DNA from: Pseudocercospora fijiensis CIRAD86
Taxonomy: Eukaryota > Ascomycota > Dothideomycetes > Mycosphaerellales > Mycosphaerellaceae
Direction of reading: 5' to 3'
DNA length: 64,000 nucleotides
Assembly: GCF_000340215.1 (NCBI RefSeq)
Contig: NW_006921538.1
Location: forward strand, 744,001 to 808,000
Shown here: in pieces, positions 35,155-63,100 of the stretch
Position numbering within the stretch: position 1 is the stretch's first letter
Layout of the letters: each line of letters opens with the position of its first letter
Translations under genes and position numbers: made by a program
The notes under the pieces: generated by a model
The model's database searches: none
Told to the model about the DNA's origin: nothing
What the model saw: only the letters and a program-made list of their open reading frames with translations

Positions 35155-35170
35155 ATCGTACGGTAGTACC
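35155..35170 (+). other. Probable hAT excision footprint (8-bp frame-breaking insertion)
   Basis: The sequence is ATCGTACGGTAGTACC. The right flank of the hAT element begins ATCGTACC (47,621-47,628). Two copies of that 8-mer would read ATCGTACCATCGTACC; the observed 16 bases match at 13 positions, with the changes only at positions 8, 9 and 11, around the centre. Removing 8 bp restores the helicase frame across the site. This is what hAT excision leaves behind. Confidence 0.65.
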
Positions 35171-38050
35171 GCTTCTCGTCGTAGAATAGATAATAGTATA
35201 CTAACTCTAATAGGCCGCCGTCGACCCGGCGATCCCGAAGACCCTAATACCTTTAGTCTAGACCGTATAACTGCTATATAGGCACGCGCTACGTAGGATG
35301 TAGCAGTTATATCTTCTCCTCGTTTATTAGGCCGTAGCCGTATACTATCTCGGCGGTAGATAGATCTTTAAGCGACGGAGGTACATTTCGAGCAGTATGC
35401 TATACTAGTTAGAGAGTTAGAGCCTAAGGCATCGACAAAGCGGACTTAGTATACTACGAGAGCCCCCTTCCGTACTTAGAACTTCTACCTCTCTATATAC
35501 CTATCGAATACACAGTTGCTATTACACTTCTACTAGCGAGTAGCAAGGGGCCTAAAAGTGCAATAGTTACTAGTATAGAATAGCAGGTACAGCGGCAGCG
35601 ACATATTTAGGCAGTTTTAAGGCATAGCGATAGGCGTTTAGTATATATAGTTTAAGCGAGAAAACGAGATAATATAGCATTAGAATACGGCATTAGAATA
35701 CAGCATTTACAGCATTAGTAATAGCATTAATAGTAACAGCATATTGAATATTATTTAGCATTAGTATCTTATAGTAATAGTATCGACCGGGCGCACGCAT
35801 TACCCTATAGCATTATTTATAGAAGATACAAATACAGCTTTAATAGTATACGCATATATTAGAATTTCCCCTACCGAAAGCACGAGATATATAGGAAGCC
35901 CTATATTAGCGTAGACAGCGGCTTTACGTAAGCGGAAATCACCTACCGAGCCTACCCGTATTTAGCAGTAGTATACCGAAGAGCCCGATACATCGAGAAC
36001 TACCCGCTCCGATAGGAGGCTTAAGTAGGTTACATATACCTAAGGAAGGCAGAAACAGGTAGAACTATATTAAAGGCACGTAGAAGGTCGTACGGAAGAA
36101 GCGTACTAGTTAGGATCTTAAGAGCCCGGAATTAGCTAAGAAGATTGCCAACTTTAAAGGATTTTATAGTTAAGGTAATCCTATAGAAATACCTTATCGA
36201 ACGAGCAGTAAGAGAGATTAGAACGAAGAGGACATTAAGCGGACTATCTATCGGTAAAGCCTAGTATTAAAAGCATTAAAGGCCTTATCTAGAACCTTAG
36301 CAAGCTCTCTATTACTATAGAAATAGGCCGGCGGAAAGGAGTAGATTTATAGCGATAAGGAGATTAATAGAATTCTCCTAGGGCTTGATCTATATCGCTA
36401 ATCTCGTAGTATAGGGCATATTAAGTTTCGATAGGTCTATAGAACAGTACGAAATTACTATAAGTACCTACGTAGTTGCGATAAGAAGAAGTAGGAGTAG
36501 GAATTTTAGAAGCGTTAGCGATTAGTACGGCAGAGATTACTCTTAGAGGGTTATATAGGACAACTAAAGGAAGCATTCGGGGACCTCGTAGGTACTAGAA
36601 AATTCCTATTACACTAGTGTAAAGAGCTAAGTAAAAGGGGGCGTCCGCAATTACTACGGTCTTATCCCTTATCTAGAAGTAGCTCTCGGCGTTCTTCTAG
36701 GTCTTACGCTAATACTAAGACATATATACCGCCGTATTCGCTACCTAACTCTCCTTAGAGACAAGGTAGCAGACCTCCTTCTTTATCCGGATTATTAATA
36801 TTATCGTTACGCTTATTAACACTATTACTACTAAGAAGTCTACTAGTTCCTCCGCTACTAGTACCAAACATAGCGACCGGCGTAGCTAACTTAGAGCTAG
36901 TTAGTATATTTGTCGGCGAAGAAGTTAAGGGTAACGTAGAGCGTTAGTAGGATCGATTTAAGCGGCAATAGGATTAGGTTAATAGTAGAGCTAACCTAGT
37001 CCGGTAGTACAAAACTTTAATATATAGATAAAGGGCGAGGCAGTACGATAGGTTAATATAGAACTAAAGGACCTAGTATAGAGACCTTACGTTAATAACG
37101 CTACGGCGGTTACTATATAGACTATTAAGGACAGGTTCTTTGCGAAATAGTCAAACGCAGTATTATTAGCTAATAACTCCGTCGAGACTATCGAAGCACT
37201 TACGGAAGTAGCATAGAAGAAAGATAAAGACCTAAGGGAATATTATTATCGTTGTATAGTCCTACTCCGCTAGGCAAACGGCAAAGATAATAACACCGCT
37301 ACTAGTACTAAGCGTACTGTTCTTACTATCGCTATTAAGGGTTTCGTTAATAGCCTCGTAGATAAGAAGCTCCGTACCGAGATATAGCGCAAGAAGCAGT
37401 CTACCCTAAAGGCGACATTAGCGGAGGCGGAGGCGGCTTAGCGCCTTATTAAGGATAAGGAGAAGGCTAAGAAGGAACAGAGGGAGCATAAACATATAGA
37501 AGTGCTAAAGGAGGCGGCTATATATTAGTCGGTTAGCAAGCAGTTACTATATAACCTTAATTAACGCTTAAAGAAGTACTGAGATGCTATAGAGCCTTAT
37601 AATGCCGACACTAATATAGTGTAGTCGGCTCCGCTAGAAGCTAAGGATTAGTAGGGCTACCTATATTAATATAGTAACGGCTACTATTATTATGCCTCGC
37701 TATTACCGATACCGCCGTAGCAACGTACGCTATACGCACTACCGAGAAACCAAGGCCCGCTAGCAATATAGCTACTAGCTTAGCAAGCAGGTTATTAGCA
37801 AGGACCTCCTTAGTAGCGCTAAGGCCTTTAGCCGCGTATACTACGCAACAATGCCGGACCTAGATATAGTAAGAACAACCTAATACTAGAGTACTATTAT
37901 ACGGCAGTCCGCCGTAGCCGTAAGTGTAATAGAGACGTCGACCTAACCCGGTCTTAGAATAGCTATATTAATAGCATAATCTAGTACCAATATAAGTTTA
38001 ATAATCTACTTTACTACGGGTACGGCTAGCGCGGACACCTCGAGCGTAAT
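35163..38050 (+). repeat. Duplicated segment S, copy 1 (2,888 bp)
   Basis: Repeated at 47,621-50,508 with a constant offset of 12,458 and no indel at any anchor compared. Its first part continues the helicase frame (RIDNSILTLIGRRRPGDPED). Its last part encodes a basic gag-like region (LRTEI.RKK.STLKATLAEAE) and ends in a CCHC-knuckle remnant (YYGYG.RGHLERN). The copy stops at AGCGTAAT exactly at the hAT left end. Confidence 0.9.
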
Positions 38051-38070
38051 TAGACCCCGCAGTAGTTCGG
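38051..38070 (+). repeat. hAT left terminal inverted repeat
   Basis: 20 bp, 19 of 20 matching the reverse complement of 47,601-47,620. The single difference is a CA versus TA site. Beyond it the two ends share only AT-rich TTTGGTTT-like words. Confidence 0.82.
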
Positions 38071-38179
38071 TTTCCGAACTACTAAACGTATATAGTTTGG
38101 TTTCTTAGCGGCGAACTAGCTCCCTAGTTCCGGTTTGGTTTTTTCGAACTATATAGATTCCTAGTTTAAACTAGAGACT

Positions 38180-38480
38180 ATATTAGTTTTACTATAAGGA
38201 CACTCTTATTCGACTGCCGGCCACGATTGCCGGCTATAATAGTAACTCTGTTACATTTACTACGCTCTTTTGCCGTTACTAGGGCATAGTTGCCGTTGCT
38301 AGGGCGTAGTTGCCGTTACTAGGGCGTGGTTTTGCTATAAGGACACTCTTATTCGACTGCCGGCTACGATTGCCGGCTATAATAGTTACTAGGTTGTATT
38401 TACTACGCTTTATTACCGTTGCTAGGGCGTAGTTACCGTTGCTAGGGCGTAGTTGCTGTTACCGGGGCGTAGTTGCTATA
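38180..38480 (+). repeat. Subterminal tandem duplication in the hAT left end
   Basis: Two tandem units of about 145 bp, each with GGACACTCTTATTCGACTGC, a GCCGGC pair and repeated GTTACTAGGGCGTAGTTGCC words. Subterminal repeats of this kind often bind hAT transposases; that role is inferred. Confidence 0.6.
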
Positions 38481-38619
38481 ATTACGAAAGCTTACCTATA
38501 TAACGTTACGTAGGCGGCAACAATTAGGGCTTCGCGATATTCTTATACTTTCAACTTCTTCCTTTATACCTATACCGACAACAACTACTATACGCTACGC
38601 CCCCGCCCCTTTCCCTTAC

Positions 38620-39540
38620 AATAGTAAGAGAGAAGCGCGCCGCGCGCTAAATAGAAGATAGAACTAAAGACCGCGAGTTTGTTTTGCCTAAGCGTCTAAC
38701 TAAAAAGCGTAAGACTAAAGAGGAGTACTCTACGAAGAAGAATTCCGTACGAGACCGCGAGAGAAAGGACAAGATAGATAAGGATAAAAGAGCTAAGGAT
38801 AAGAGAAGAAAGGCGCGGAATAAGGCATTCTATCGATAGCTAGCGCCTATAGAAAAAAGTGAAGGTTAGAATAAGAAGATAACCTAAGAGAAGGCTAAGA
38901 GGAGGAAAGAATTGCGGCTAGTTTTCGAGCGTAAAGTTCTAGTAGCGTAAGTCAATCTAGCTAGCGGCCGTAGCTAGCAGCTATAGCCGGCAGCCGTAGC
39001 CGGCAGCTATAGCCGGCATATTTTTCTTTAATACGTTAACTAATAGCATTTAGACCTATAGCCGCTACCTCTATCGATACGACCGATAGTAACGGAGATA
39101 TTCAGATAGCCGAGAACAACAATACTAGAGTTTAGGATGCCGCGATAGAGCTTAATACTACGAATAAAGGAACTAAAAAAAGCGAGGAGATACTATACGT
39201 CGATCTAGTAACAGGTGCAGTCTTAGGGCCTAACGCTATAGACGATAAGCGCTAGGAGTAGATCGAGTATAGTTAAAGAGACGAGATACTAGTAAAGGGC
39301 TAAGGTATAAGTCCTATCAATCTAGAAAATTATAGTTAAAGCTACTACGAAAAGCTAGCAAGGATTGGAATCGAGACTAGTCGTCTTTATATCCTCGATA
39401 TAGAGTAGAAGTTTCTTTATTAGTATTAGAGCGAAGCCTTTGCGTCTATAAAGGCAAAGTAGCTTGCGATTAATGCGATCGGGGCTAGGTATCTAGGGAC
39501 GGCAGAAGTGTTACTATAGGAGGAAGGGGTATAGGTAATT
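38620..39540 (+). pseudogene. Unrecognised basic cargo gene in the hAT element
   Basis: A frame broken only by TAG/TAA encodes a Lys/Arg-rich stretch (DRERKDKIDKDKRAKDKRRK). At about 38,949-39,053 an intron-like segment follows (GTAAGTC donor, CTAAT branch, TTTAG acceptor) holding several AGCCGGCA copies, then a second coding stretch (KLARIGIETSRLYILDIE) to an intron-like donor near 39,535. No domain recognised. Confidence 0.4.
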
Positions 39541-40229
39541 ATTCTATACTCGGCATATATAGCCGGCGTTCGTAGCCGGCAGATACTAACAGTTAAATAG
39601 AAAGCGTTTCTCGAAGGCAGAGTGCTACTGCTATATAAAATCTTTACTAAGGCAGAGAGGGCTTATATCCGGAATCTAAGCTACTAGTAGGATAGGTTAG
39701 CGTTAGAATTCTCTGAATCTCTATATAAGCCTCCGAAGGATTACCTATTTTAGCGATACGGCTTTATCTCGACTACTCCGTAGGTACCCGAAGAAGCTCG
39801 AGCGCTCTTTAAGGTCTTTACTAAGAAGCGGAAGGAGTTCGAGGATTAGGATTGGTTAATAGAGCTATTAGTTAGTCTTAGGTTTCGTAGTTAGACTCGG
39901 CCTAAGCATTTGCTTGTCGAGTATCTTATACTAAAAGAGGATAGATTGAGACTAAAAACGAGCTTAGATTCGTTAGGTATAGTAGCTCGGTTCCGTTAGT
40001 AGGAGAGAGCCGCCGTATAGAAGGCAAAATTTAGGTAGTTAGGGTAGCTAGGAAAGAAATTCTAGTAGTTAGGCTAGCTAGGGTAGCTAGGAAAAAAAAT
40101 CTAGTAGTTAGGTAGCTAGGAAACAAAAAAAAAAGGTAGCTAGCTATTTACTGCCTAGCTGTTCCTAACGATACGATGCTATAAAAGAAAGGGTGTTTCT
40201 CTATAGCTACTAGTATATATCTACTACTC

Positions 40230-43200
40230 CTAAGTCCTTACCTTACCGTACGAAACCTTAAAACATACCGACCGACATTGTATATATACTAGGCGCTATA
40301 CTAGGAAGGGTAACAACGAGACGACAGTCGAAACAGTCTAGTATACGAGCGAGATTGCGACAACGTCGAGAGGAGGTCGTATACTTACCTTCGAGCCTAT
40401 CGAGTCCTAGACTACGATTAGGGCTAGATTTATCCTCTCCGAATCCTAGTAGTAGGAATTCATTATAGGGTACTACTACCTAGTCCTTACCTTTACGGAG
40501 TCTAAGTAGAAGGTTATTCGGAGATATAAGAACATCGAGTATTAATCCGGAAATCTTCGAAAAGGCTAGCTAGGCATATCTTTAGAAACCCGAGTATATA
40601 GAGCAGTTCAATTAATAGGTCTATAAGATATAGTTCCCTTTATACTTACGTTCGAAGGAGTGTAAACTCCGGAAGTACTCGATGCGATAGGGGAGTAAGG
40701 AGCGAACGGACACATTCTAGAAGTTCTTTATAGAGGGGGCATTATACCGTTATACGACTTCTCGACTTAAAGGTCAACTAGTAATTGTCTATAACTTCTA
40801 CGGTTCAATCTTAAAACACCCGAAACTAGGGGATAGGAACTTATCGCCTACGAACTATCTCTATTCTAAACGGTGTCGGGAATCTTAAGGAGAGAGGAGA
40901 GTTAATATAGATATAGCGTTCTAGAAAGAGGTATATCTTCTAAAATGCCGGCTATAGCTGCCGGCTATAGCTGCCGGCTATAGCTACCGGCTATAGATTC
41001 CGGCTACCTAAATCAACCGTAGAGATCTAGCTAATTATTATAGGCTACGCTTAAGGAAGCTCTAGGATTAAAGGCTACCGATTTCTCCCCCGAAGACTTT
41101 AAGCAACTAGCAAACGAAATGCTAGCTATAAACGGTCTTCCGGAAGACTTCTACGAAAGGGAGTCTATATAGAAGACATACCTATATCTTATAAACTACC
41201 CTCCCCTATTTCTCGGCGCGACAACCTAGCGTATTATATTCGAAAAGAACAAAGAGGCTGCGTTAGACGACATTCGGGAGATCCTCCGTAATACTCGCCG
41301 AGTAGCTATTACTGTCGATAGCTAGTTAAGCCGGACTATAAGAGCCTCCTTCCTCTCGATTATACTATACTTTATTAATTCGGATTAGAAACTCTAGGAA
41401 CTTATAATCGGATTCCCTAAAATTCTAGGTTCCTATACTAGTAAGGATATAGCGAAGCTTGTCTATACGGTAATAGACAGGGTTAGCGTAACAACGAAAC
41501 TAATCTCGATTACTACGGATAACGCTAGTAATAATCGAATATTATATAAGGCGTTGTATATACAATTTACTCGTATATATCTTTAAAATCACTAATTGTA
41601 TCGATAGGGTCGAGTACGTAGAGGAGATTATAAGGTCTACAATCTAGCTTAATCTTCCGAATGTTAAGCTCGCTACGATTCCGGATACGTACGATAATAC
41701 GCACGATAATAACGATAAAGAGGAGCCTATTAATAGCCCTAGCCCTATTAAATCGGAGCCGACGTCGTTGCTAGTTACATCCCTATAGAAGTTTCCCTAC
41801 CTCGCTTATATAGTTCAAATCGCGATCCGAGCCCTCTTTAAGACGCTTAAAATTGCACTATTAAACGACGACTAATAGAAGATCCTAGATAAGGATAAAG
41901 CAAAGTCGAAAGTCGAGAAACTTATTATAGTAATAAGACGGGATAAGGTAGAGAGCCTCGCTCTCGTTTTATATAAAGTATAACTTTTGTCCGTAGCCGG
42001 CACCTATAGCTAGCAACCTAGTATAGTTCTAACTCTTTTTCTCTAGCTTCGTCGTCTAGTAATATATACGAACTCGAGCTTATAGAGATATAACCGATTC
42101 GAGGCTATTTAAAAGAACCTAATCGAGCGCCCTAAAACCGATGTCTAGAATATCGTATAGAATAAGCGATAGTAAAAGCGGCCTCCTTAGCGCCCACTCC
42201 GTTTTACCTAAGACGTTAAGACCTAGTTCGATTCGACTTTCTATATAGTTATAAGGGGATATACTTTACGTACCGCTCTCGAGATCTATTAGAGTTCCGA
42301 GGGTATTAAGTAGCTCGGCCTTACCGCCGCCGAATAGCGCTAAGCAGAGTATCTCGTCGATATTAGTAAGCATTACGCGAAGGTTACTACTACGATTAGA
42401 AGAACCCGAGGACCGACGATCTACCTTGTCTTTACGTACTATAACTAGCTCTTTAACGAGCTCGAGGAAACCGTAGCTAAGCTAGCTAAGAAGAGCGTTC
42501 CCTAGAAAGTAGCTATAACGAAAGCTATAAACACCTCCTATACTAAGTTGCATAAATATTACAGTGCTACCTTTAACTCGTTCGGGGATATCTATAGCGT
42601 TATATACTTGCTTAACCCGGTAGAAAAGGATATATACTAGCAGAGGCTAGAATAGAAGGCGGACGAGGTATAGCCGAAGCATTACTAGACTATTCTAGAA
42701 AAGATATTCTACGAGCGTCGGAAAGAAACTAGTCTAAATACAGCTCCTATAAAGAAAAAGAAGGTTTAGAAGGCTCCGACATTATACCTGTTTCGTAGGT
42801 AGGAAGTAGAGGCAGAAGAGGAAGTAACTACTAAAGTGAATAAAGAAGAGTTCGATCTCTATCGGCGCGCGAGTAAGTATAAACCCGTAGGCTTAGAAAG
42901 AGGGCTAATAATCTCTAGATCTTACCGGTCTTCTAGACGAATTCGGAGACGATATTCTCGCTATATAGTAGCGGTTAGAGCCTAAGTTTCTAACGATAGC
43001 GTCGGTCGCTCGGGACGTCCTCGCTATCCCGAGCGTAGGTATAGGCTATAAGAGGTCTTTTAGTATCGCTCGTTACTAGGGCCGCTTTAATCGAATATAC
43101 TCGCCTACTACCTTCGAATCTATTATAGTATTCCGATACTATCTCCTCTACTAGAATCGCTAAGGTAGGTTACTAAAGATTATACTAAAGGAGTTAATCG

Positions 43201-43390
43201 AGGAATTAGAAAACCTTAAGATCGAAGAAACCTAGGAGCGCGAAGAGAATACGAAATTTAGTCTAAGCGAAACCCTAATTAGCGATAACGAAGAGGAGGA
43301 GGGCGGAGGTAGAAGGCGATACCGGATCGAGAAGCGGAAACGTATATAGGCTTAGAGTAGCTTTAAAGAGACGAAGCGTTTACGTATAAG
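40230..43390 (+). pseudogene. hAT transposase, RIP-inactivated
   Basis: Coding traces over about 3 kb, divided by probable introns near 40,947-41,040 and 41,980-42,050. The diagnostic hAT stretch reads VAITVDS.LSRTIRASFLSI, then ELIIGFPKILGSYTSKDIAK, then KLISITTDNASNN (about 41,497-41,535), matching the conserved region around the catalytic Asp of hAT RNase-H-like transposases. Downstream are helical parts and a later block (YSATFNSFGDIYSVIYLLNP). Gln/Trp codons are TAG. The N-terminal DNA-binding zinc finger could not be identified. Confidence 0.75.
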
Positions 43391-43753
43391 GTAATATAGC
43401 CGGCGTATATAGCCGGCATATATCCGAAATGTGTTTCGAATTCCTAGGACCTAAACAGACTAGTTGCTATAGCAACCGACCCCGCTTACCTACGGACTAT
43501 TTCTAATTCTCTATTCGCTCTTCCTCTCCTTCTTCCCTTTCTCTATATTCTTAAAGACAAATATACCTTAAGGATTCGGCTCTTCGGGCCTTCCTAAGCC
43601 GGCTACCTCCCCTTCCTTAAGCTACTATCCTTTATTCGAATCTAACGATAACCTAATAAGGCGGTTTAATAGAAGACTATTTGTTCTAGAAGGTAAGAAG
43701 CATTAATATCTCCTTACGATTATATACTTATTAATTTTCTAGGTCCTACCGAT

Positions 43754-44437
43754 ATGCCCTCGTCGCCTAAACGCGCAGATAAATATCTTTAGAGGCTAAA
43801 GGGTAAAGGTAAAGTAAGCTAAGTATAGGGAGACCGTAGCGAGAACGAGATATCGGAAGAGCAAGGCTCTCCGTAGTATATATAAAGGAAGGGGGTTCCT
43901 CGGAAAATAGTACCGAAAAACAAGAAGGCTATAGGTAGATAGGAGAAGGCTAAAAAGAGTAGGCGGACGAAGACTATCGCGAAGAAAAGTTATCTTTCTA
44001 TTAAAAGAAAGGGAACAAGGCAGGACTCGACGACAAAGAAGCGGCGCTTCAAACTAGGTACTATTACCCTTCGCTAGATCCGGCTTTTCTAAAATAAAAG
44101 AGGGACCGAGCTTTTAATCCCTAAGACTCCCTTCTAGCGACTCGTCCGAGAAATTACATTAGATTTTCGGTCTAGTATACGATTTACGGCTAAGGCGATT
44201 AGTACTCTTTAGGAAGCTACGGAGGTATTTCTCGTAACTGAGCTTAAGCTTTTAAACCTCCTTGCTATCTATACGAAGCGGGTTACTCTTTAAAATAAAG
44301 ATATATAGCTTCTAGCTAAAATTCGGCGTCGGTTTATAGCGGATTAGTTGGAAATTGTATTTAGTCGTTAGATTAACCTAGGAGGAGGCCTATTTTCGCA
44401 TCCTTTTACCGGCTATAGGTGCCGGCTACATTTCTGA
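43754..44437 (+). pseudogene. Histone H3-fold gene 1 carried by the hAT element
   Basis: ATG 43,754 opens a frame with a basic tail (MPSSPKRADKYL, later KAKKSRRTKTIAKKS), then a full histone H3 fold at about 44,048-44,340: GTITLR.IRLF, TELLIPKTPF.RLVREI, LDFRSSIRFTAKAIS, L.EATEVFLV, LLAIYTKRVTL.NKDI.LL. Stops inside are TAG/TAA at positions where H3 has Gln or similar. Loop 1 (DFRSSIRF) has the length of canonical H3 (DFKTDLRF), without the extra residues of CENP-A. The tail does not resemble the ARTKQTARKS tail. So this is a divergent H3-like protein with its own tail. A TGA at 44,435 is the first stop that is not an expected RIP product. Confidence 0.75.
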
Positions 44438-45639
44438 TTTTATCTCCGCGCCGTCCCTAAATCTAAGGTACGAAGTAGAAACCTAGCGCTCTATATTTAC
44501 CCGGCTATTACAGAGACGAGCTATATTTAGATTAGTTTCTTCGTATATCGCGACCTAGCGGGTAGTAAGCGAAAGGGCGATAGAACGTTTATAATACGTC
44601 TCTATTTAGACCTAAAACATAAAGGTCCTAAGGAGCCCTAGTATCCTAACTATAAGGAGATTCTTTAGCATTAGCACTTTGATCCTCTATACTACGAGGT
44701 AGATAGTAAGCCTACGAGAGAGAAACTTTAACGAGAAATTCTCTATAATACGTAGCGCTATTGCATAGCTATAGATGCGTACTAAGTCCGGCAACTCGAA
44801 GAAGAATTAAGATAGCGTATTAGCGACCGAGGAAGAGATCGATAGTATACTAGTAGAGTCGAGGTCTTATAAGCGAAGCATAAGATAATATAGGCTCTTA
44901 GTCGTATAGAGTAACGTACTATATAAATAACTAGGCGTACTACTCTTATTTACTTACGACCTATATCCTAGGATACTCTTCTCGTACTTTTTATACTCTT
45001 TTCTAATACCTTACCTATAAGCGCTCCGCGACAACCGAGTGAATATAAGCTATAGGGTTTCCGCTCGGTACCTTAGCCTCCGAGATAGGGCGGAGTTGAA
45101 TTTAGAGCGATAGCCGGCACTCGTAGCCGGTATATAGAGACGGTAGTAGGCCTTTTCCTGCTAAATAACTAGCTTGTTTAGTATAGCCTACCTAATATTT
45201 CTTATATTTACTAGCAATAGGCCTAGGTTACTTATAAGATTACTATAGCTAGTAAAGGCATTACTAAAGAATATCTATACTATAGTAAGATACTATTATT
45301 ACGCCGGCTATTTATTAAAAGGAGGCTTTCGCCTATTACTATGCTAGCTATATATGCCGGCTATATTTCAAAGTCTCCCGTACCTGCCTTTTTTAGCCGT
45401 ACCTGCCTTTTTTAGCCGTGCCTGCCTTCTTTCCTTGCTCTAATGTTACTATAATATAGGCTTGCGCGAAGCTTACTCTATTGCCTAGCGATACCGCGAT
45501 ATTACCGCTATATTCAACCTTCGTATCGATACCTATACCTCTACGCTCTATATCTACTACTTCCGTAATACCCTCGCTCCGCGCGCGCCTTCGTATACCT
45601 TCGTAACGCACTTTTTTCCTTAATTCGACGACTTTTATA
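44438..45639. other. hAT interior between the two H3-like genes
   Basis: Coding traces without known domain (LAGSKRKGDRTFIIRLYLDL around 44,545-44,610), possibly a C-terminal extension of gene 1 after an intron or a separate cargo gene. GCCGGC-type repeats occur near 44,410, 45,110 and 45,340-45,365. Confidence 0.4.
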
Positions 45640-46470
45640 ATAGCGAGTCTACTTAACTAAGTTACGACGCCTCGTAAGAAGGGACCTAGTGCTTCTACGG
45701 GTCGTAATAAGACCGGAAATAGTAGAACGAGCATAGTACATTAACGTAAGAGGGCTGCTACTATTACCGCTAGCTCCGGTACTAGAAAGGGCGTCGCGAG
45801 CAAGGCTCCGCGTAAGACAACGGCGGGCAAGGCTCTACGCAAGACGACAACTAGCGCTTCTACTACTAGTAGCAATCGTGCGAAGCGTCGATAGCGCCTA
45901 GGAAGTAAGTCCTATTTATAGCCGGCAGCGTAGCCGGCAGCGTAGCCGGCAGCGTAGCCGGTAGCGTAGCCGGCATTCTTACTGTCTTTTTACTAATCCT
46001 TCTTTAGCCGTAGCCCTCCGTAAGATTCGGCAGTATTAGAAGAGTTCTTAGCTCCTAATCCGCAAAACTCCTTTCTAACGACTTATTCGCGAAATTGCCT
46101 AGGATTATAGAACGGACCTTCGCTTCTAAGCCTCCGCGATAGGCGCCCTTTAAGAGGCTATAGAAGCCTACCTAGTTCGTATCTTCGAATATATGTTTCT
46201 CTTCTACCTCTTTTCGGACTATACTAATACTATTTTAGCGGTCAACCTTATAGCTATCTACGCGAAGCGTATAACGATTATAGATAAGGATTTTAAAGCA
46301 CTCGATTAGATTCTAAAAGGCTAGAATGTCTATATTCGAGACGGTGCTAGGTAGGATAGATATTCTAGTAGAAAGGATGTTCGTAGTATTATCTGCAAGC
46401 TTTTCTATATACGAAATGAGCCGCTATTATACGGCGCTGTATACCGCGCTCTAAATACTCTCTAAGTATA
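45640..46470 (+). pseudogene. Histone H3-fold gene 2 (H3-like tail, introns) carried by the hAT element
   Basis: Exon 1 ends at 45,904 and encodes an H3-like tail with GRNKTGN and SKAPRKTTAGKALRKTT. Intron 45,905-46,007 (GTAAGT donor, CTAAT branch, TTTAG acceptor) carries five AGCCGGCAGCGT-type units. Joining gives the H3 sequence GTVALRKIRQY across the junction. Exon 2 reads LLIRKTPF.RLIREIA.DYRTDLRF.ASAIGAL.EAIEAYLVRIFE. A second 48-bp intron (46,191-46,238) has a good branch and acceptor but its donor reads ATATGT, as expected from RIP of TGTATGT. Exon 3 continues NLIAIYAKRITIIDKDF. The start codon is not certain (ATA where ATG is expected near 45,637-45,642). Confidence 0.75.
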
Positions 46471-47186
46471 TATATATAGTATAGTATGCTTTATTAGCCG
46501 TACGGAATAGAAGTCTCCTAAAATCCCGTTAGTACTAAGGAGTAAAAAGGCCGGCTACGCTGCCGGCTACGCTGCCGGCTACGCTACTAGCTACGCTACT
46601 AGGTTTTTCAAAGAACTAAAAGAAGATAGACATTCCGGTTAATTTGTATTAGTTTAGATTTTTATAAAAAGAAAACAGGGAAAAATAAGGAAGGTTGAAG
46701 AGCCTAATAGTTATAGTTATAGGCACTATCCCTGTTTTCTAGAGCATATTATATACCTGCCTTCGCAACTCTACCTAATACTCCCTCTAAATATCCTTAT
46801 ACTCTACCTACTGAAAATTCAACTAGGTACCTAGACCTATAGCTGCCTCTATATCTTTTACTATCTTCTATAGGTTAAAGGCCTCTTCTATAGTAGCCTC
46901 TACCTCCTTATACAATACGAAGTTACTACCTACCCTACCCTTTATATCTCCTAAATAACTAAGAGTTCTAAGGAACGAACTAGTATTCGGCCTTAGTATA
47001 GCGAGTAACTAGTAGAACGTTCTATAGAGCTGCCTTATAGCTCTTTTATATACTATACCGATACCGAGGGAGGAGCTATCCTAGTACTTAATATTGTCGA
47101 ATAGTTCGGTAGGAAAGTGTATAAACTTCTTAAGGAGGAGGACTTCTAAGGAAATCGATAAGTTCTGCCTAGATCTAGATAAAGAC

Positions 47187-47276
47187 ATTCTGCTAAGCAG
47201 TTAGGGAATTGAACCGTAAACGAAAGGATGAAATTCATACCTAAGGAGTGCAGTTTCCGAACTGAACTATAATGCC
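47187..47276 (-). other. tRNA-like sequence (pseudogene or SINE head)
   Basis: On the minus strand TAGTTCAGTTCGG (47,269-47,257) resembles a pol III A box and GGTTCAATTCC (47,215-47,205) fits the B box, 41 bases apart, with a possible 4-bp D stem. No complete cloverleaf can be drawn, so it is not called as a tRNA. TGG to TAG in the A box would fit RIP. Confidence 0.35.
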
Positions 47277-47600
47277 TTGTGTATATATATATATGCTTTT
47301 AATTAGTTAGTGCCCTTAGCTGATTATCTATAGATTTGAGGTTATATAAGTACCTTCATATAACTACGTAGCCTAAGTAGGATTCGAAAATTCTATAAGT
47401 ACTAAGGACTAAAAATGCCGGCTACGCTACCGGCTACACTCTCGTATCTTATAAAGGGCTTGCTTAAAGCTACGTATACATTCGTACACTTCTTAAAAAC
47501 CGATAAATTATATAGTTCGAACTAGCTACTTATATAGTTGCTTAGCAAACCAACCCAAACTAAACTAGAGTTTCGGCTTAGCAAACTAAACCAAACCAAC

Positions 47601-47620
47601 CCGAACTACTACGGGGTCTA
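47601..47620 (+). repeat. hAT right terminal inverted repeat
   Basis: CCGAACTACTACGGGGTCTA, inverted copy of the left end with one mismatch. Directly followed by ATCGTACC, then segment S. Confidence 0.82.
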
Positions 47621-50508
47621 ATCGTACCGCTTCTCGTCGTAGAATAGATAATAGTATACTAACTCTAATAGGCCGCCGTCGACCCGGCGATCCCGAAGAC
47701 CCTAATACCTTTAGTCTAGACCGTATAACTGCTATATAGGCACGCGCTACGTAGGATGTAGCAGTTATATCTTCTCCTCGTTTATTAGGCCGTAGCCGTA
47801 TACTATCTCGGCGGTAGATAGATCTTTAAGCGACGGAGGTACATTTCGAGTAGTATACTATACTAGTTAGAGAGTTAGAGCCTAAGGTATCGACAAAGCG
47901 GACTTAGTATACTACGAGAGCCCCCTTCCGTACTTAGAACTTCTACCTCTCTATATACCTATCGAATACACAGTTGCTATTACACTTCTACTAGCGAGTA
48001 GCAAGGGGCCTAAAAGTGCAATAGTTACCGGTATAGAATAGTAGGTGCAGCGGCAGCGACATATTTAGGCAGTTTTAAGGCATAGCGATAGGCGTTTAGT
48101 ATATATAGTTTAAGCGAGAAAACGAGATAATATAGCATTAGAATACAGCATTAGAATACAGCATTTACAGCATTAGTAATAGCATTAATAGTAACAGCAT
48201 ATTAAATATTATTTAGCATTAGTATCTTATAGTAATAGTATCGACCGGGCGCACGTATTACCCTATAGCATTATTTATAGAAGATACAAATACAGCTTTA
48301 ACAGTATACGCATATATTAGAATTTCCCCTACCGAAAGTACGAGATATATAGGAAGCCCTATATTAGCGTAGACAGCGGCTTTACGTAAGCGGAAATCAC
48401 CTACCGAGCCTACCCGTATTTAGTAGTAGTATACCGAAGAGCCCGATACATCGAGAACTACCCGCTCCGATAGGAGGCTTAAGTAGGTTATATATACCTA
48501 AGGAAGGCAGAAACAGGTAGAACTATATTAAAGGCACGTAGAAGGTCGTACGGAAGAAGCGTACTAGTTAGGATCTTAAGAGCCCGGAATTAGCTAAGAA
48601 GATTGCTAACTTTAAAGGATTTTATAGTTAAGGTAATCCTACGGAAATACCTTATCGAACGAGTAGTAAGAGAGATTAGAACGAAGAGGATATTAAGCGG
48701 ACTATCTATCGGCAAAGCCTAGTATTAAAAGCATTAAAGGCCTTATCTAGAACCTTAGTAAGCTCTCTATTACTATAGAAATAGGCCGGCGGAAAGGAGT
48801 AGATTTATAGCGATAAGGAGATTAATAGAATTCTCCTAGGGCTTAATCTATATCGCTAATCTCGTAGTATAGGGCATATTAAGTTTCGATAGGTCTATAG
48901 AACAGTACGAAATTACTACAAGTACCTACGCAGTTGCGATAAGAAGAAGTAGGAGTAGGAATTTTAGAAGCGTTAGCGATTAGTACGGTAGAGATTACTC
49001 TCGGAGGGTTATATAGGACAACTAAAGGAAGCATTCGGGGACCTCGTAGGTACTAGAAAATTCCTATTACACTAGTGTAAAGAGCTAAGTAAAAGGGGGC
49101 GTCCGCAATTACTACGGTCTTATCCCTTATCTAGAAGTAGCTCTCGGCGTTCTTCTAGGTCTTACGCTAATACTAAGACATATATACCGCCGTATTCGCT
49201 ACCTAACTCTCCTTAGAGATAAGGTAGCAGACCTCCTTCTTTATCCGGATTATTAATATTATCGTTACGCTTATTAACACTATTACTACTAAGAAGTCTA
49301 CTAGTTCCTCCGCTACTAGTACTAAACATAGCGACCGGCGTAGCTAACTTAGAGCTAGTTAGTATGTTTGTCGGCGAAGAAGTTAAGGGTAACGTAGAGC
49401 GTTAGTAGGATCGATTTAAGCGGCAATAGGATTAGGTTAATAGTAGAGCTAACCTAGTCCGGTAGTACAAAACTTTAATATATAGATAAAGGGCGAGGCA
49501 GTACGATAGGTTAATACAGAACTAAAGGACCTAGTATAGAGACCTTACGTTAATAACGCTACGGCGGTTACTATATAGACTATTAAGGACAGGTTCTTTG
49601 CGAAATAGTCAAACGCAGTATTATTAGCTAATAACTCCGTCGAGACTATCGAAGCACTTACGGAAGTAGCATAGAAGAAAGATAAAGACCTAAGGGAATA
49701 TTATTATCGTTGTATAGTCCTGCTCCGCTAGGCAAACGGCAAAGATAATAACACCGCTACTAGTACTAAGCGTACTGTTCTTACTATCGCTATTAAGGGT
49801 TTCGTTAATAGCCTCGTAGATAAGAAGCTCCGTACCGAGATATAGCGCAAGAAGCAGTCTACCCTAAAGGCGACATTAGCGGAGGCGGAGGCGGCTTAGC
49901 GCCTTATTAAGGATAAGGAGAAGGCTAAGAAGGAACAGAGGGAGCATAAACATATAGAAGTGCTAAAGGAGGCGGCTATATATTAGTCGGTTAGCAAGCA
50001 GTTACTATATAACCTTAATTAACGCTTAAAGAAGTACTAAGATGCTATAGAGCCTTATAATGCCGACACTAATACAGTATAGTCGGCTCCGCTAGAAGCT
50101 AAGGATTAGTAGGGCTACCTATATTAATATAGTAACGGCTACTATTATTATGCCTCGCTATTACCGATACCGCCGTAGCAACGCACGCTATACGCACTAC
50201 CGAGAAACTAAGGCCCGCTAGCAATATAGCTACTAGCTTAGCAAGCAGGTTATTAGCAAGGACCTCCTTAGTAGCGCTAAGGCCTTTAGCCGCGTATACT
50301 ACGCAACAATGCCGGACCTAGATATAGTAAGAACAACCTAATACTAGAGTACTATTATACGGCAGTCCGCCGTAGCCGTAAGTGTAATAGAGACGTCGAC
50401 CTAACCTAGTCTTAGAATAGCTACATTAATAGCATAATCTAGTACCGATATAAGTTTAATAATCTACTTTACTACGGGTACGGCTAGCGCGGACACCTCG
50501 AGCGTAAT
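47621..50508 (+). repeat. Duplicated segment S, copy 2 (2,888 bp)
   Basis: Collinear with 35,163-38,050. The differences read are all transitions, mostly CA/TA or TG/TA. Unlike copy 1 it runs without break past AGCGTAAT into the following coding sequence, so it represents the uninterrupted joint between S and the rest of the host element. Confidence 0.9.
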
Positions 50509-57700: not shown

Positions 57701-60100
57701 TAAGAAGGCCTAAAGAAGACCTTAGAGAAGTTAAGGGGATAGCCCTCCGGTTGCCTAGATAAGCTACTAGGGAACTTCTCGAGTACCGCCTTCCTAGGTA
57801 GTGCCTCCTTAAGCCGCTTCTCTATTTTCTATACTAGTGTCCTTATCGCTTCCCGAGGCCGTAGTCCTCTCGGTATCCGAGTTAGTGTCGAGGTAGTTGC
57901 GAATAAAGTTTAGAGGTAGGTCCCGGTAGGTACCGGCATTAGAGGGGGCCTATAAAGGCGGCTCCGCCGGGGTAGGGTTGTTATTGTTTTCTTAGGAGCT
58001 TATCTCGTCGGTAGAACAAACAATTTATAGAAGACGATAAACGATTAGAATAAATAGGAAGGATATAGTATCGATAAAATTAGATAGGTTACTAGGTATA
58101 CTTAAGGTAAGGAGGGAGCGTAGACGGGCTATAGCGTACTTTGTAGTACGTATCGCGTCTATATCCTCGAAGCAAGGGGAGGGTAGGCGGTAGTCCGTAT
58201 ATATATAGAATAAAGGGGGCGGCGAATGTTACCTAGCTAGCTAGCTAGTATACCTACTATACCCGTTCTAGGCCCTCTTTGTTCCTCTCTTATTAATTTC
58301 TATTAACTCGCAATATACCGATTACGGCACCGCGGAAGGGTCGTAATAGCCCGGAAGGAGGTTTTAAGTTAGGCTCGCGCCGATTAGCGGAAGGGATAGG
58401 GGGCTATCGACTTTTCGGGGTTCTTTATATCCCTATCTCTAGTTTCTTATAGCGGGCTCTTAGGTTTCTTTCTATATAGGTCGTTTCTTATAAGGTCCCG
58501 CCTACTATAGACAGGTAGGGAGTCGTAACATTCGTAAACAGTATTTCCTTTTACTTTAAGTCGGTAACGGTATTCCTTTTACTTTAAGTCGGTAACGGTT
58601 TATTAGTAGTAGGACGTCTCGATACTACTAAGGTCTTTTTAGCGGTAGTATTACATTAGTAGTGTAGTCCTCGCTCTAGGCGAAGGCTGTAAACGTTTCT
58701 TCTTAACTATATATATACCTACACCTTTAAATGAATAAAGATGGCCCTACCTTCGGCTCTAGAAAATGTAGGCGGGACGAGTAGGTCGTAGGTAGAGGTA
58801 CATATATAGGGAACTGTATACTATAGGCCTAGTACTTAGTAAACTGCAAGGGGTCGGCGTAGCATTGTGTACTTCGAAGGGAAGGTGTTATAAATATTAA
58901 AAAGAAGAGAACGGCCGTAGGGAGGGCTACATTACAGCTAGATTAGGTACATTTCCTATGTCTCTCTTGCTGTATGTTATCGTAGCTGTATCTCCTTGTA
59001 CCGTATGTGTATATGTGTTCTAATTATAAAGGTAGTTATGTCTTCTAATACAAAAGCAGGGAGAGAGGATACAAGTATATACGCCTATGCTAAGCTAGGT
59101 TTCCCTACTATACTAGATACGCGTATATTATCCTATAAAGAATCCGAACGTAGGAAGCCTATAGTAATGCTACGAACCTATTAACCTACTTAGTAGAAGA
59201 GTCGCTATCGAGCCGCTACTTAAGGTATACCTTACTAAAGAGTTTTTACCGAGTTAGACCGTTAGCCGTATTATAGATATACCTTACTAAAGAGTTTTTA
59301 CCTCCGCTAATCTACCCGAGACCCGCAGTTTGTTATACTAAGACAAGACTGCAATCTAATAACTAGAAACTAATGCTTATTCGGTTAAGTACGCGGTTAG
59401 CGCCCGTTAAGCTATAGTATACCTACTCGCTAGGAGAGTCGCCTCGCAACGTCTTACTTAGCAAAGCCTATCGGAGACTAAACCTCGAAGAGGAAGGACT
59501 AAACAAACTACCTACCGAGGAACCTTAACTATTAGACAAGCGGCTCTATCGGTAGCAAGCCGCAGAACTAGCAAGGAATAGTATTAATCGCTATAGAGCT
59601 ACCTATATACGACAAAGAGGTATCGACACTGTTGCTATTAAGAGCCGATAGCTAGTATATTACTAGGGGTGTTAGTATATTAGTATATATATATAGAAGA
59701 AGAAGAAGAAGAAGTTAAACTAGAAAGCGGAGGTCTATATTAGCGTATCGTAGGTAAGGTTTGCCTCTACTAATAGCAATACGCTATTATAATAATAGCA
59801 AGGCAATAATAACGGCTATGCATTACCGCACCTTTAAGGCAATAGTCGCCGACTGCTAGTTCAGTGCCTAAGGCTACGCTAGCGACTAAGGCTACGCTAG
59901 CGACTAAGGCTACGCTAGCGACTAAGGCTACGCTAGCGACTAAGGCTACGCTAGCGACTAAGGCTACGCTAGCGACTAGAAGCTATACTAGTTCTTACTA
60001 TCGCAGAGGTATAACAAGCATTGTTCGAGCAATAATAGGAGATATAGCGAGCTAACAATAATATAATAGAAGAGTAGTAAGGAGCTAGACCTTATTAAAT
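57701..60100. other. RIP-degraded DNA with small tandem repeats
   Basis: No coding trace recognised. It holds a roughly 30-bp tandem duplication at 58,537-58,600 (TTCCTTTTACTTTAAGTCGG core), a repeated TATACCTTACTAAAGAG block near 59,226 and 59,277, a TA/GAA microsatellite at about 59,688-59,714, and an 18-bp tandem array at 59,866-59,975. Confidence 0.5.
59866..59975 (+). repeat. 18-bp tandem repeat, about six copies
   Basis: The unit AAGGCTACGCTAGCGACT is repeated almost perfectly. It happens to stay open as a Thr/Lys/Ala-Leu repeat frame, but nothing suggests a real gene. Confidence 0.85.
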
Positions 60101-60109
60101 GCTATCTCT

Positions 60110-63100
60110 AGCGAATCTAAAAGCTAGTCTCGTTAATCTTCGATCGCTTCTAGTACTATTGCTATTCTAAGAGCCTTATTATTATCTTAGCCTAGATCCT
60201 ACTACTTAGTAGCAGTAGTAGTAGCGGTCTCTTAGATAGTACTATATATAAGTGTTAGGTCGTTAGCTACTACGAATACGATCCGGACCTCTTCGGTAAA
60301 TCCGTGCCTTACGGTCTATACGACGATATGCCTCTTCCTCGCCTATCGATAGATCCTAGATATATAAGAAGTCCTATATAGCTAAAGCCCTCGATATAGT
60401 ACTACTCCTAGTCGTCGCTCTCGCTAGATCCCTAGATAGATCTATCTCTTCTACTAGTACGTCGAGATAAGCTAGTCTACGACTATCGATATAGTTAACA
60501 ATTAGTTAATAGAACTGCGAGACCTCTATATTAATATTAGTACTAGGAATACCGCGATTAGCGCTACTATTAATCCGCTCCTAGGCATTAGCTCTATCTA
60601 TACTATCGACCCTATTAATCGCATTGTTATTCTCTCTAGTATAGGTAACGCCGAGGGTTAATAAGTAGTTAGACTTATTTAGCGTATCGACGACCTCTAT
60701 AATATACGTAGCGCCGAGAGCGTATACGTCGTCGGATAGACTAAGCTTAGATTAGCCTATCTTAGCTGCTACTAGCTTATAGTTAGCAAGACCTTTATCG
60801 ACTAGCTTAGAGGCATACGAGAAAACCTAAGTTGTAGCCTTCTTATTAGTATAGTACGATATAGTCTCTATACTTATCGACTCTATTATCTCCTAGATAG
60901 TCGTAGTAGCCGTCCGGTTCTGCGAAACAAGCTCTATAGTCGTAGCTAAATTATAGGTAGCGTTGCCGTACGCTTTAATATCTATCTAGAATTCCTTATT
61001 AAGCAGTTCCTATATCTTATCTATAGCGACACTACGACCGTTACTCCTAGGATTAACTATAGAGGAGGCTATAATTGCGTCCTAAAGTAGAGTCTTTACT
61101 ATATTACTAAACAACTAGCGTAAGTAGACTATCTCGCGGCTATAGTTCTACTATCGAGCACTAAGGAACTATAGGATAAGATAATCTACTATACGGCGAA
61201 GATAACTAGTATCTATCTTGCGGATCGATTTATAGACAGTTAAATAGCTATCGATCTGTTAGACTATACGATATATAGTTGTAAATGCGGGATCCTTATA
61301 AGGAGTACTATTAGCAAGTTAGCTATTCTATATAGTGCGAGTAAATATAGCCTCGTAGATAGATTTAACGATCTCGATATACTTAAATAGGTCTATATAC
61401 TCGACAATAGTATCGATAATGTCCTTGCGGCTGCTAATATCTTCTATAGTAGAGAGAGCTACAATTACAACTAGATCAGTCGGCTTGCTACCTATATTAA
61501 TCTTATAGCGCTTTCTTAACTTATAAATAAAACGGGCGACGACCCGAGCCTAGAAAGACCGTACGACGACCTAGCGGACTAAATAGTACTACGGCTTGTC
61601 TTTGTTTATACGAGGAATACTAAGATTTATAGCATCGGCCTATAAGGAGTAGGCAAGGGGCTCGCTATTACTATTCTTATCGAAATAAGATCGCAAAGTC
61701 GTATAGTAGCAGTTTATTTCGATATAGAAGAAAGCCGGGATAGGAACAATAAACTCCTTACGGTCGTAGGCGCGCGTACTCTCTACGCTTTCGCATTTAA
61801 CAGTCTTGTTACGAGCAACCGTTATCTAGTTACTAATAACAAGGATTAGCTAGTCCTAGTACTTGTCGTTATCGGAATTTAGCTTAAGGAAGCTCTCGAA
61901 TATGTCGTTATAGACCTCGTATATCTCCTAGATCGAGGCTTCGTCGTATATAGAGACTAGTAAGGAGACAATCTAAGTCTTCTTCTTCGACTTAATCCTA
62001 ATTATAACCTAAGGAAAACGCTCCTTCGGACTACTACCTTTAACTAACTCTAGTAAGCGTCGCTGCTACTGTTTACGCTAGGCTTGCTATTTACGCTAGG
62101 CTTGCTATTTACGCTAGGCTTGCTATTTACGCTAGGCTTGCTGTTCGTCGGTCTACTAATTATCGGTCTGCTACTAGCGTTTAGACTTTCTCTTGCCCGT
62201 AGACTTGCCCTTCTGCTTAAAATCAAAGCTATTAAACAGACCTTAGATACTCGGGAAGATAGAACTAAGGGCCTAATCGATATAATATAGAGACATTAGC
62301 TTCTTATATCTATCGTTAGATATGCTCTAGAAGATAGACTTAGCGTTTAGCTTATATCGGTAATCTAATATATCCTTAGTTAGGCTACCTTCTAGCATCT
62401 CTAGATAGATTGCTAGATACGAGGTAGTAAAGTTCTACTATATAGTATTGCTTCTAAGCATCTAGAATCCTCTACGGTTCGCTTAGCGGTAGAAGTTGTC
62501 GTAAACAAGGACCTATTAACGAGAAGACTTTGCGATCTTAATAGCGTACCGTCGATGCATCTACGTCGTCTTCCGGGCAAGTCGCTAGAGTATACGGAAT
62601 AACGGGCAGATACCTATAGCGCTAAGAACGTTAACTATACGCGCCTTAATACTACTAGTATAAAGGTAGAGACCGATCTTCTTACTAAACTAGCCGGCCT
62701 TCCTTAGGGCAATCGATCGGACTACGAGCTATATAATAAACATAATACGCTTCTTTATACGCTAGTGTTTATCGCTAACGATATCCTCCTAAGCACTATT
62801 ACCGTTATCGGTAATAGTAGTAGTATCGGCGGCGGCTACGAGCTTCTCCTAGATCCTACTAGCGGTATATCGCTAATTAGGCAATATACTCTATAGAACG
62901 CGATACTAGACTAGAGTAATCCTCTTAATATTATAGTCTATCCGCTTAAGGAGATCGGTATTCGAAGTATTCTCGTCTTCTATTTCCTTAGTAATCGCCT
63001 CGAGATTATATTCGCTAAAGAACTCCCTTCTAACGAGTCGCTTTAGCTCTATACGCATCTCCGTCGTACTTATAAGGCCTTTACTTAGTAGAAAGGCCTT

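What the first reader, a model, noticed from the sequence alone, without database searches (positions are those of the whole stretch)
43754..46470. Two histone H3-fold genes as cargo of a hAT transposon
Between the hAT transposase traces and the right TIR lie two separate frames with an unmistakable H3 fold (TELLIPKTPF.RLVREI in one, LLIRKTPF.RLIREIA in the other, each followed by the alpha-2, L2 and alpha-3 motifs in order). Gene 2 also has an H3-like tail (SKAPRKTTAGKALRKTT) and an intron whose removal yields GTVALRKIRQY exactly as in H3. The two differ strongly from each other and from canonical H3, so they are not recent captures of the host gene. I know of no described hAT element carrying histone genes. 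A transposon-encoded H3 variant could mark the element's chromatin, affect silencing, or bias insertion toward certain chromatin; these roles are speculation.
Basis: partly seen in the sequence, partly recalled or inferred. Interest (0 to 1): 0.92.

Follow-up and report, generated by a model that had tools for sequence, protein, structure and literature searches.

The report
Dead transposon carrying two histone genes
This is one mutated copy of an already published fungal jumping gene that carries two histone H3-like genes; the new point is that these look like spliced, long-kept genes of the jumping gene and not like chance captured fragments.

Summary
Both frames are histone H3 relatives inside a 9,570-bp hAT element (38,051-47,620). 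Its ends recur in 8 of 10 fetched sister copies, all 8 with 8-bp target duplications. It is not new. Dhillon et al. 2019 (PMC6710886) described this family: 784 H3-like sequences in 471 hAT elements of Pseudocercospora fijiensis, all inactivated by RIP. A separate hAT-H3 element was reported in Pyrenophora in 2013 (PMC3538342). The genome here fits P. fijiensis (inferred).

What I add differs from the published 'captured transcript' view. By sequence, gene 2 has two introns; the second is the published '16-AA insertion', and removing it gives a gap-free H3 fold of 84 residues. Gene 1 has one likely intron upstream. Orthologous pairs of both genes occur in two diverged element families. Gene 2 exon lengths differ only by multiples of three (10 of 10 copies), unlike its flanks. 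Transversions hint weakly at purifying selection on the gene 2 fold (P about 0.02-0.11) and not on gene 1. No complete tail read keeps the RKSTG motif around H3K9. The boldest reading, a resident histone variant that resists H3K9-based silencing, is untested.

The parts
38051..47620 (+). whole hAT element copy (9,570 bp), RIP-damaged
   Evidence: 8 of 10 fetched sister copies share these ends, 5 exactly and 3 within 3 bp; TpA/ApT 1.70-2.03 in the 2-kb windows from 38,001 to 48,000
38051..38070 (+). left terminal inverted repeat (20 bp)
47601..47620 (-). right terminal inverted repeat (20 bp, one RIP-type mismatch to the left one)
41218..43091 (+). hAT transposase remnants: RNase H-like part 41,218-41,583 (recognised from recalled hAT motifs), 41,789-41,992, 42,215-42,769, C-terminal dimerisation part 42,945-43,091
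   Evidence: Dimer_Tnp_hAT 18.2 bits, E=0.0022, below its cut-off of 21.4, with stops read as a residue; transversion constraint on the RNase H-like part P=0.001
43563..43692 (+). gene 1 exon 1 (proposed)
   Evidence: frame read by eye; no indels in 11 of 12 other copies measured, a 56-nt loss in one; no purifying signal, 13 non-synonymous to 0 synonymous fixed transversions
43693..43742 (+). gene 1 intron (proposed, 50 bp)
   Evidence: GT..AG borders by eye; 1-nt length differences between copies fall here
43743..44371 (+). gene 1 exon 2: long basic tail plus H3 fold (fold 44,054-44,332)
   Evidence: Pfam Histone 4.8e-21; PDB H3 3.5e-24
45640..45904 (+). gene 2 exon 1: H3-like tail with in-frame KAPRK-type repeats
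   Evidence: exon length differences are multiples of 3 in 10 of 10 other copies measured; tails
45905..46007 (+). gene 2 intron 1, holding a 12-bp minisatellite; 67-103 bp in different copies
   Evidence: donor, branch-like and acceptor motifs in the copies aligned; lengths
46008..46190 (+). gene 2 exon 2 (first part of the H3 fold)
46191..46238 (+). gene 2 intron 2 (48 bp), reported in 2019 as a 16-AA insertion
   Evidence: removal gives a gap-free 84-residue H3 fold; pattern of this length in 0 of 60 first-order Markov resamplings, a test framed after seeing it; donor lost by a RIP-type change in every copy read
46239..46305 (+). gene 2 exon 3 (end of the H3 fold; true stop uncertain)

Best explanation
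This is a RIP-killed copy of the published P. fijiensis hAT-H3 element. The two H3-like genes are resident genes of that element. They were duplicated and diverged before its families A and B split, kept introns and frames while the element was alive, and died by RIP. The living ancestor most likely made H3-like proteins that paired with host H4 and entered nucleosomes. With an altered R8-G12 tail segment they would be poor substrates for the H3K9 methyltransferase and so would have weakened silencing of the element. Shown: element, H3 relationship, presence of both genes in both families, frame-keeping in gene 2. Supported by sequence only: the introns. Inferred: translation, nucleosome entry, anti-silencing. 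I put resident genes at about 0.5 (lowered from 0.55 after weakened the selection test) and the anti-silencing step at about 0.2.
For: Both genes are present in 8 of 8 complete family-A copies and in 5 of 6 family-B copies read. Gene 1 and gene 2 each form a clade spanning A and B (100/99 and 97/98). Gene 2 exon 1 differs by multiples of 3 in 10 of 10 copies (about four separate indel events) and exons 2-3 have no indel, while upstream, intron 1 and 3' parts carry other lengths. Gene 2 fold transversions with intron 2 left out: window vs c12, 15 non-synonymous against 19.7 expected, P=0.026; vs c17, 14 against 19.0, P=0.018; fixed plus internal 16 against 20.8, P=0.026; private 8 against 8.0. 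The transposase control shows constraint in 3 of 5 pieces. Gene 1 vs gene 2 transversions by codon position 16, 12, 24, P=0.037. RKSTG is in none of the 14 gene 1 and 11 gene 2 tails printed. In Neurospora, ectopic H3 with changes at positions 9-14 lowers DNA methylation beside wild-type H3, and R8-G12 is needed for DIM-5 in vitro (PMC3248561: abstract and two Results sections).
Against: My first gene 2 test (P=0.004) counted the proposed intron as codons; without it the fixed A|B changes alone give P=0.11, internal ones P=0.058 and all variable sites P=0.072. Gene 1 shows no purifying signal: fold 11 non-synonymous to 1 synonymous fixed (9.6 expected), exon 1 13 to 0 (10.6 expected). Tails evolve as if neutral. 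P values are uncorrected for many tests. Two family-B gene 2 tails contain RKST, though followed by I. Gene 1 has frameshifts in two B copies and a 56-nt loss in a third. A rearranged second element in the c14 stretch has gene 2 but only the start of gene 1. No transcript, protein or intact copy was available. The published authors read the same elements as captured transcripts.
Confidence: 0.45

Rival explanations
1. Transduplication (Dhillon 2019): a host H3 transcript was captured once by a hAT element, hitch-hiked as passenger DNA, and was destroyed by RIP. The genes never served the element.
For: All but two of 150 histone matches listed carry stops, and those two are host genes; all gene 2 matches listed carry stops. 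Gene 1 lacks an intron at the host exon junction and shows no purifying signal. Tails evolve as if neutral. It is the published reading (PMC6710886).
Against: By sequence gene 2 has introns, so it is not a plain processed copy. Orthologous pairs in both families and frame-keeping in gene 2. Weak transversion signal on the gene 2 fold.
Confidence: 0.42
2. The H3-like proteins worked for the element, but by steering insertion or packing element DNA, or as a dosage effect on H3, not by blocking H3K9 methylation.
For: The fold is retained while the tail is free to change. Gene 1 has a basic tail of about 100 residues.
Against: PMC6710886 found no insertion bias in the TSDs of 99 elements. Nothing here tests it directly.
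Confidence: 0.1
3. The 48-bp segment of gene 2 is a coding 16-residue insertion at the end of helix alpha-2, as published, not an intron.
For: It is a multiple of 3, open in the copies read and free of indels, with few transversions. No copy read keeps an intact donor.
Against: Removing it gives a gap-free H3 fold. Branch and acceptor motifs resemble those of intron 1. The pattern at length 48 was seen in 0 of 60 resamplings.
Confidence: 0.2
4. Ordinary host H3 or CenH3 paralogues into which a transposon happened to insert nearby.
For: The host does keep intact H3 and CenH3 genes (L001, L029).
Against: Both H3-like genes move with the element between the same ends in 8 of 8 complete family-A copies, each in a different target. 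Loop 1 of both genes has H3 length, shorter than that of the host CenH3.
Confidence: 0.01

Closest known systems
hAT-H3 family of Pseudocercospora fijiensis and five related species (Dhillon et al. 2019, PMC6710886; text parts 1-5 of 7 read)
   Same: Length 9.5-9.9 kb, 20-bp TIR, 8-bp TSD, one or two H3-like copies with the second 16 AA longer, RIP, intact host H3 on scaffold/contig 6, hundreds of copies. This window copy is a member.
   Different: They report transcript capture without introns, a 16-AA insertion, and DUF659 without a dimerisation domain. Here gene 2 has two proposed introns, gene 1 a likely one, a below-cut-off dimerisation match is found, and two families with orthologous gene pairs are separated. 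Their assembly has 56 scaffolds, this one 30 contigs.
hAT-H3L element of Pyrenophora tritici-repentis (Manning et al. 2013, PMC3538342; passages read)
   Same: hAT element with TIRs carrying an H3-like gene plus an ORF of unknown function; the authors ask whether altered chromatin helped elements amplify.
   Different: PMC6710886 found no similarity between the hAT sequences and calls it an independent event.
DNA transposons encoding TET/JBP dioxygenases in fungi (PMC12730594; passages read)
   Same: Transposons, hAT among them, with an epigenetic gene as cargo.
   Different: Other gene, other fungi.

Membership tests
hAT-H3 element of PMC6710886 | full length 9.5-9.9 kb with 20-bp TIR | tested here: met
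   9,570 bp; TIR 38,051-38,070 and 47,601-47,620
hAT-H3 element of PMC6710886 | one or two H3-like copies, the second 16 AA longer in straight translation | tested here: met
hAT-H3 element of PMC6710886 | hundreds of RIP-damaged copies and one intact host H3 on scaffold 6 | tested here: met
   150 scored of 772 candidates, 148 of the 150 with stops; intact H3 on contig C6 (L001)
hAT superfamily | 8-bp target site duplication | tested here: met
   8 of 8 complete family-A copies; the window copy itself has none
hAT superfamily | hAT transposase with C-terminal dimerisation domain | tested here: inconclusive
   PF05699 18.2 bits, below cut-off 21.4; whole-frame scans found nothing
hAT superfamily | catalytic RNase H-fold residues | not tested
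   recognised only from recalled motifs
histone H3 | H3 fold by curated profile and best relatives | tested here: met
   PF00125 75.7 and 68.2 bits; the 60 PDB hits shown for each are H3
histone H3 | canonical N-terminal tail (ARTKQTARKSTGGKAPRK) | tested here: not met
   tails longer and altered; RKSTG in none of 14 gene 1 and 11 gene 2 tails (the partial B5 dropped; two gene 1 tails frameshifted part-way)
CenH3 (CENP-A) | longer loop 1 than H3 | tested here: not met
   loop 1 has H3 length in both genes; host CenH3 is longer
processed (retro) copy of host H3 | no introns | tested here: not met
   for gene 2 only: intron 1, one codon from the host intron and in the same phase; no transcript to confirm splicing. 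Gene 1 has no intron at that junction

The most novel reading that the evidence does not exclude
A transposon-encoded, silencing-resistant histone. Two resident H3 variants keep the nucleosome fold but have lost the RKSTG recognition segment around K9, so that when expressed they dilute methylatable H3 and loosen the heterochromatin that would silence the element, as tail-mutant ectopic H3 does in Neurospora.
Probability: 0.2. Interest if true: 0.85.

Novelty: already known. Interest (0 to 1): 0.4.

Why it matters
The element and its H3 cargo are published, so the finding itself is not new. The corrected anatomy changes the question. If the genes are spliced, paired and kept in frame across element families, they are candidate working parts of a transposon. 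A mobile element that makes its own H3 would be a direct weapon against silencing. The intact H3L elements reported in Pyrenophora make this testable.

Tried and rejected
Protein database search with gene 1: 104 candidates, none at E<=0.001. With spliced gene 2: 7 relatives of 66 candidates, all with a histone domain, five of them unnamed. Whole-frame Pfam scans of the 5' part found nothing; shorter pieces gave the below-cut-off dimerisation match and weak noise. A structure model of the gene 1 fold was poor (pLDDT 63.7, pTM 0.36); its only PDB match at E<=0.001 was a nucleosome entry (4x23_A, TM 0.42), so I give it no weight. I first read the 48-bp insert as an intron with another donor, which broke the frame; the donor one step upstream keeps it. 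I first thought gene 1 intronless; the upstream exon came out. The first transversion test counted the proposed intron 2 as codons; one search repeats it without, and is weaker; the pooled test was also weaker. All are reported. Whether intron 1 is homologous to the host intron is undecided.

Not-in-print statements (gene 2 introns, orthologous pairs, K9 segment) rest on searches and on the parts of papers named; subscription papers and preprints are not covered.

Full report
The window is G000:C7:744,001-808,000 of a 73.9-Mb, 30-contig fungal genome. From 30 kb on, and at 4-10 kb, it shows the composition left by repeat-induced point mutation: TpA/ApT 1.43-2.45 and (CpA+TpG)/(ApC+GpT) 0.18-0.47 from 30 kb on, 1.37-1.79 and 0.68-0.91 at 4-10 kb, against 0.38-0.73 and 1.18-1.49 elsewhere.

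With stops as X, gene 1 matches Pfam Histone at E=4.8e-21 and gene 2 from exon 2 at E=1e-18. The 60 PDB hits shown for each (of 176 and 175 matched) are H3. Compared with host H3 (L001, no stops; two introns and a divergent H4 gene read by eye), gene 1 is identical at 43 of 78 comparable fold codons and gene 2 at 53 of 78.

The genes belong to the transposon. The 9-base TIR motif alone is not beyond chance. Ten copies were fetched, chosen among the best-scoring gene 1 hits, so the choice favours copies with gene 1. Eight of the ten share the ends 38,051 and 47,620 (5 exactly, 3 within 3 bp) at 93-96% identity, and all eight carry a perfect 8-bp target duplication, each with a different target (read by eye). 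The other two (c12, c17) are a diverged family B at 77-86% identity in the long shared segments. The c14 stretch also holds a rearranged second element at 79-88% with gene 2 but only the start of gene 1. The window copy has no target duplication and sits between 2,885-bp direct repeats that are 98.6% identical.

The family is published. PMC6710886 (text parts 1-5 of 7 read) describes 784 H3-like sequences in 471 hAT elements of P. fijiensis, 99 of them complete, with 20-bp TIR and 8-bp TSD, all inactivated by RIP, with the intact H3 on scaffold 6, and the same event in five relatives. The profile search here had 772 first-look candidates and scored 150; 148 of these carry stops, and the two without are host H3 (contig C6) and host CenH3. 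That the genome is P. fijiensis is an inference from this fit; the paper's assembly has 56 scaffolds, this one 30 contigs. PMC13041039 (passages) repeats the 784-copy result. PMC3538342 (passages) reported a transcribed H3-like gene in a hAT element of Pyrenophora tritici-repentis and asked whether altered chromatin helped elements multiply.

What differs from the published reading: PMC6710886 concludes that an H3 transcript was captured because introns are absent, and explains a 16-AA insertion in the second copy as a mutation. Here gene 2 has an intron at 45,905-46,007 with donor, branch-like and acceptor motifs in the copies aligned, one codon from the host intron and in the same phase, holding a 12-bp minisatellite whose repeat number varies. 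The 16 residues correspond to 48 bp (46,191-46,238) ending in a branch-like and acceptor sequence; its donor is lost in every copy read by a RIP-type change. Leaving it out gives 84 residues that align to host H3 without a gap. A pattern of this kind at length 48 occurs once in the 34-kb RIPped region and in 0 of 60 first-order Markov resamplings; at any length of 40-70 it occurs 4 times against a mean of 0.43. That test was framed after seeing the pattern. Gene 1 has a likely upstream exon and a 50-bp intron. No transcript was available to confirm any of these introns.

Were they genes of the element? Four tests. (1) Both genes are present in 8 of 8 complete family-A copies and 5 of 6 family-B copies read (the sixth, L032, showed only gene 2 in the stretch fetched). 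Twelve rows of the family-B gene 2 search have 81% identity or more, out of 150 scored of 786 candidates. (2) On a fold tree of 19 rows and 91 columns, gene 1 (100/99) and gene 2 (97/98) are clades spanning A and B; the nine other H3 and CenH3 rows group at 84/77, below the program's mark for firm support. So the two genes separated before the families did. (3) Gene 2 exon 1 differs from the window by multiples of 3 in 10 of 10 other copies measured, from about four separate indel events, and exons 2-3 have no indel, while upstream, intron 1 and 3' parts carry other lengths. Gene 1 exon 2 keeps frame in the 8 other A copies and in B1 and B4, but not in B3 and B6 (the partial copy B5 was left out, and B2 for gene 1). 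(4) RIP makes only transitions, so transversions were counted. Gene 2 fold without intron 2: window vs c12, 15 non-synonymous against 19.7 expected, P=0.026; vs c17, 14 against 19.0, P=0.018; fixed A|B 14 against 16.8, P=0.11; internal 2 against 4.0, P=0.058; fixed plus internal 16 against 20.8, P=0.026; private 8 against 8.0; all 27 against 31.2, P=0.072. Earlier versions that counted the 48 bp as codons gave P=0.004 and 0.003 pairwise, 0.049 for fixed changes and 0.083 pooled. Gene 1 fold: pairwise 6 against 7.0, P=0.33; fixed 11 against 9.6; pooled P=0.95; exon 1 fixed 13 to 0: no signal. The transposase control shows constraint in three of five pieces (P=0.001, 0.03, 0.047) and none in two. 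Between gene 1 and gene 2, transversions by codon position are 16, 12, 24 (P=0.037). P values are uncorrected. Read together: modest support for gene 2, none for gene 1 beyond its retained fold.

Mechanism: both genes keep the H3 fold, while the tails change freely and are altered around the K9 equivalent. RKSTG is in none of the tails printed (14 gene 1 and 11 gene 2 copies after removing repeats; the partial B5 dropped; the gene 1 tails of B3 and B6 are frameshifted part-way); two B gene 2 copies have RKST followed by isoleucine. In Neurospora, ectopic H3 with changes at positions 9-14 lowers DNA methylation beside wild-type H3, and R8-G12 is required for DIM-5 in vitro (PMC3248561: abstract and two Results sections read). 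From this I infer, without test, that such proteins could weaken H3K9-based silencing. The published passenger reading remains a strong rival.

Noticed in passing
35166-38050 and 47624-50508: A 2,885-bp direct duplication (98.6% identical) brackets the element, with 3 extra bases on the right and no 8-bp target duplication, unlike the 8 complete sister copies. It looks like an aberrant insertion or a tandem duplication at the insertion site.
   Followed up: partly
45918-45975, 38958-39022, 40942-41007, 46541-46597, 47410-47440: A 12-bp minisatellite (GTAGCCGGCAGC, its complement and variants) is scattered through the element, including gene 2 intron 1, where the repeat number varies between copies.
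   Followed up: partly
L023 (copy c17), just after the gene 2 fold: A short nested insertion with ends like those of the host hAT element (TAGACCC..GGGTCTA) and an apparent 8-bp target duplication: a likely non-autonomous derivative.
   Followed up: no
G000 contigs C11, C12, C17, C20, C23: The 12 rows of family-B gene 2 all lie on these five contigs, four of them with lengths of 0.33-1.67 Mb where shown (C11 not shown), while rows of family A lie on many contigs (capped list); possibly dispensable chromosomes.
   Followed up: no
39136-40300: A possible further masked frame upstream of the transposase, with no Pfam match; [quoted passage not shown]
   Followed up: no
P0004, P0006, P0007: Unnamed database H3 proteins with odd tails share a tyrosine (IYAKRV) with both H3-like genes where usual H3 has histidine; they could be other mobile H3 variants.
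   Followed up: no
59845-59988 and 62067-62138: 18-bp tandem repeats outside the element.
   Followed up: no
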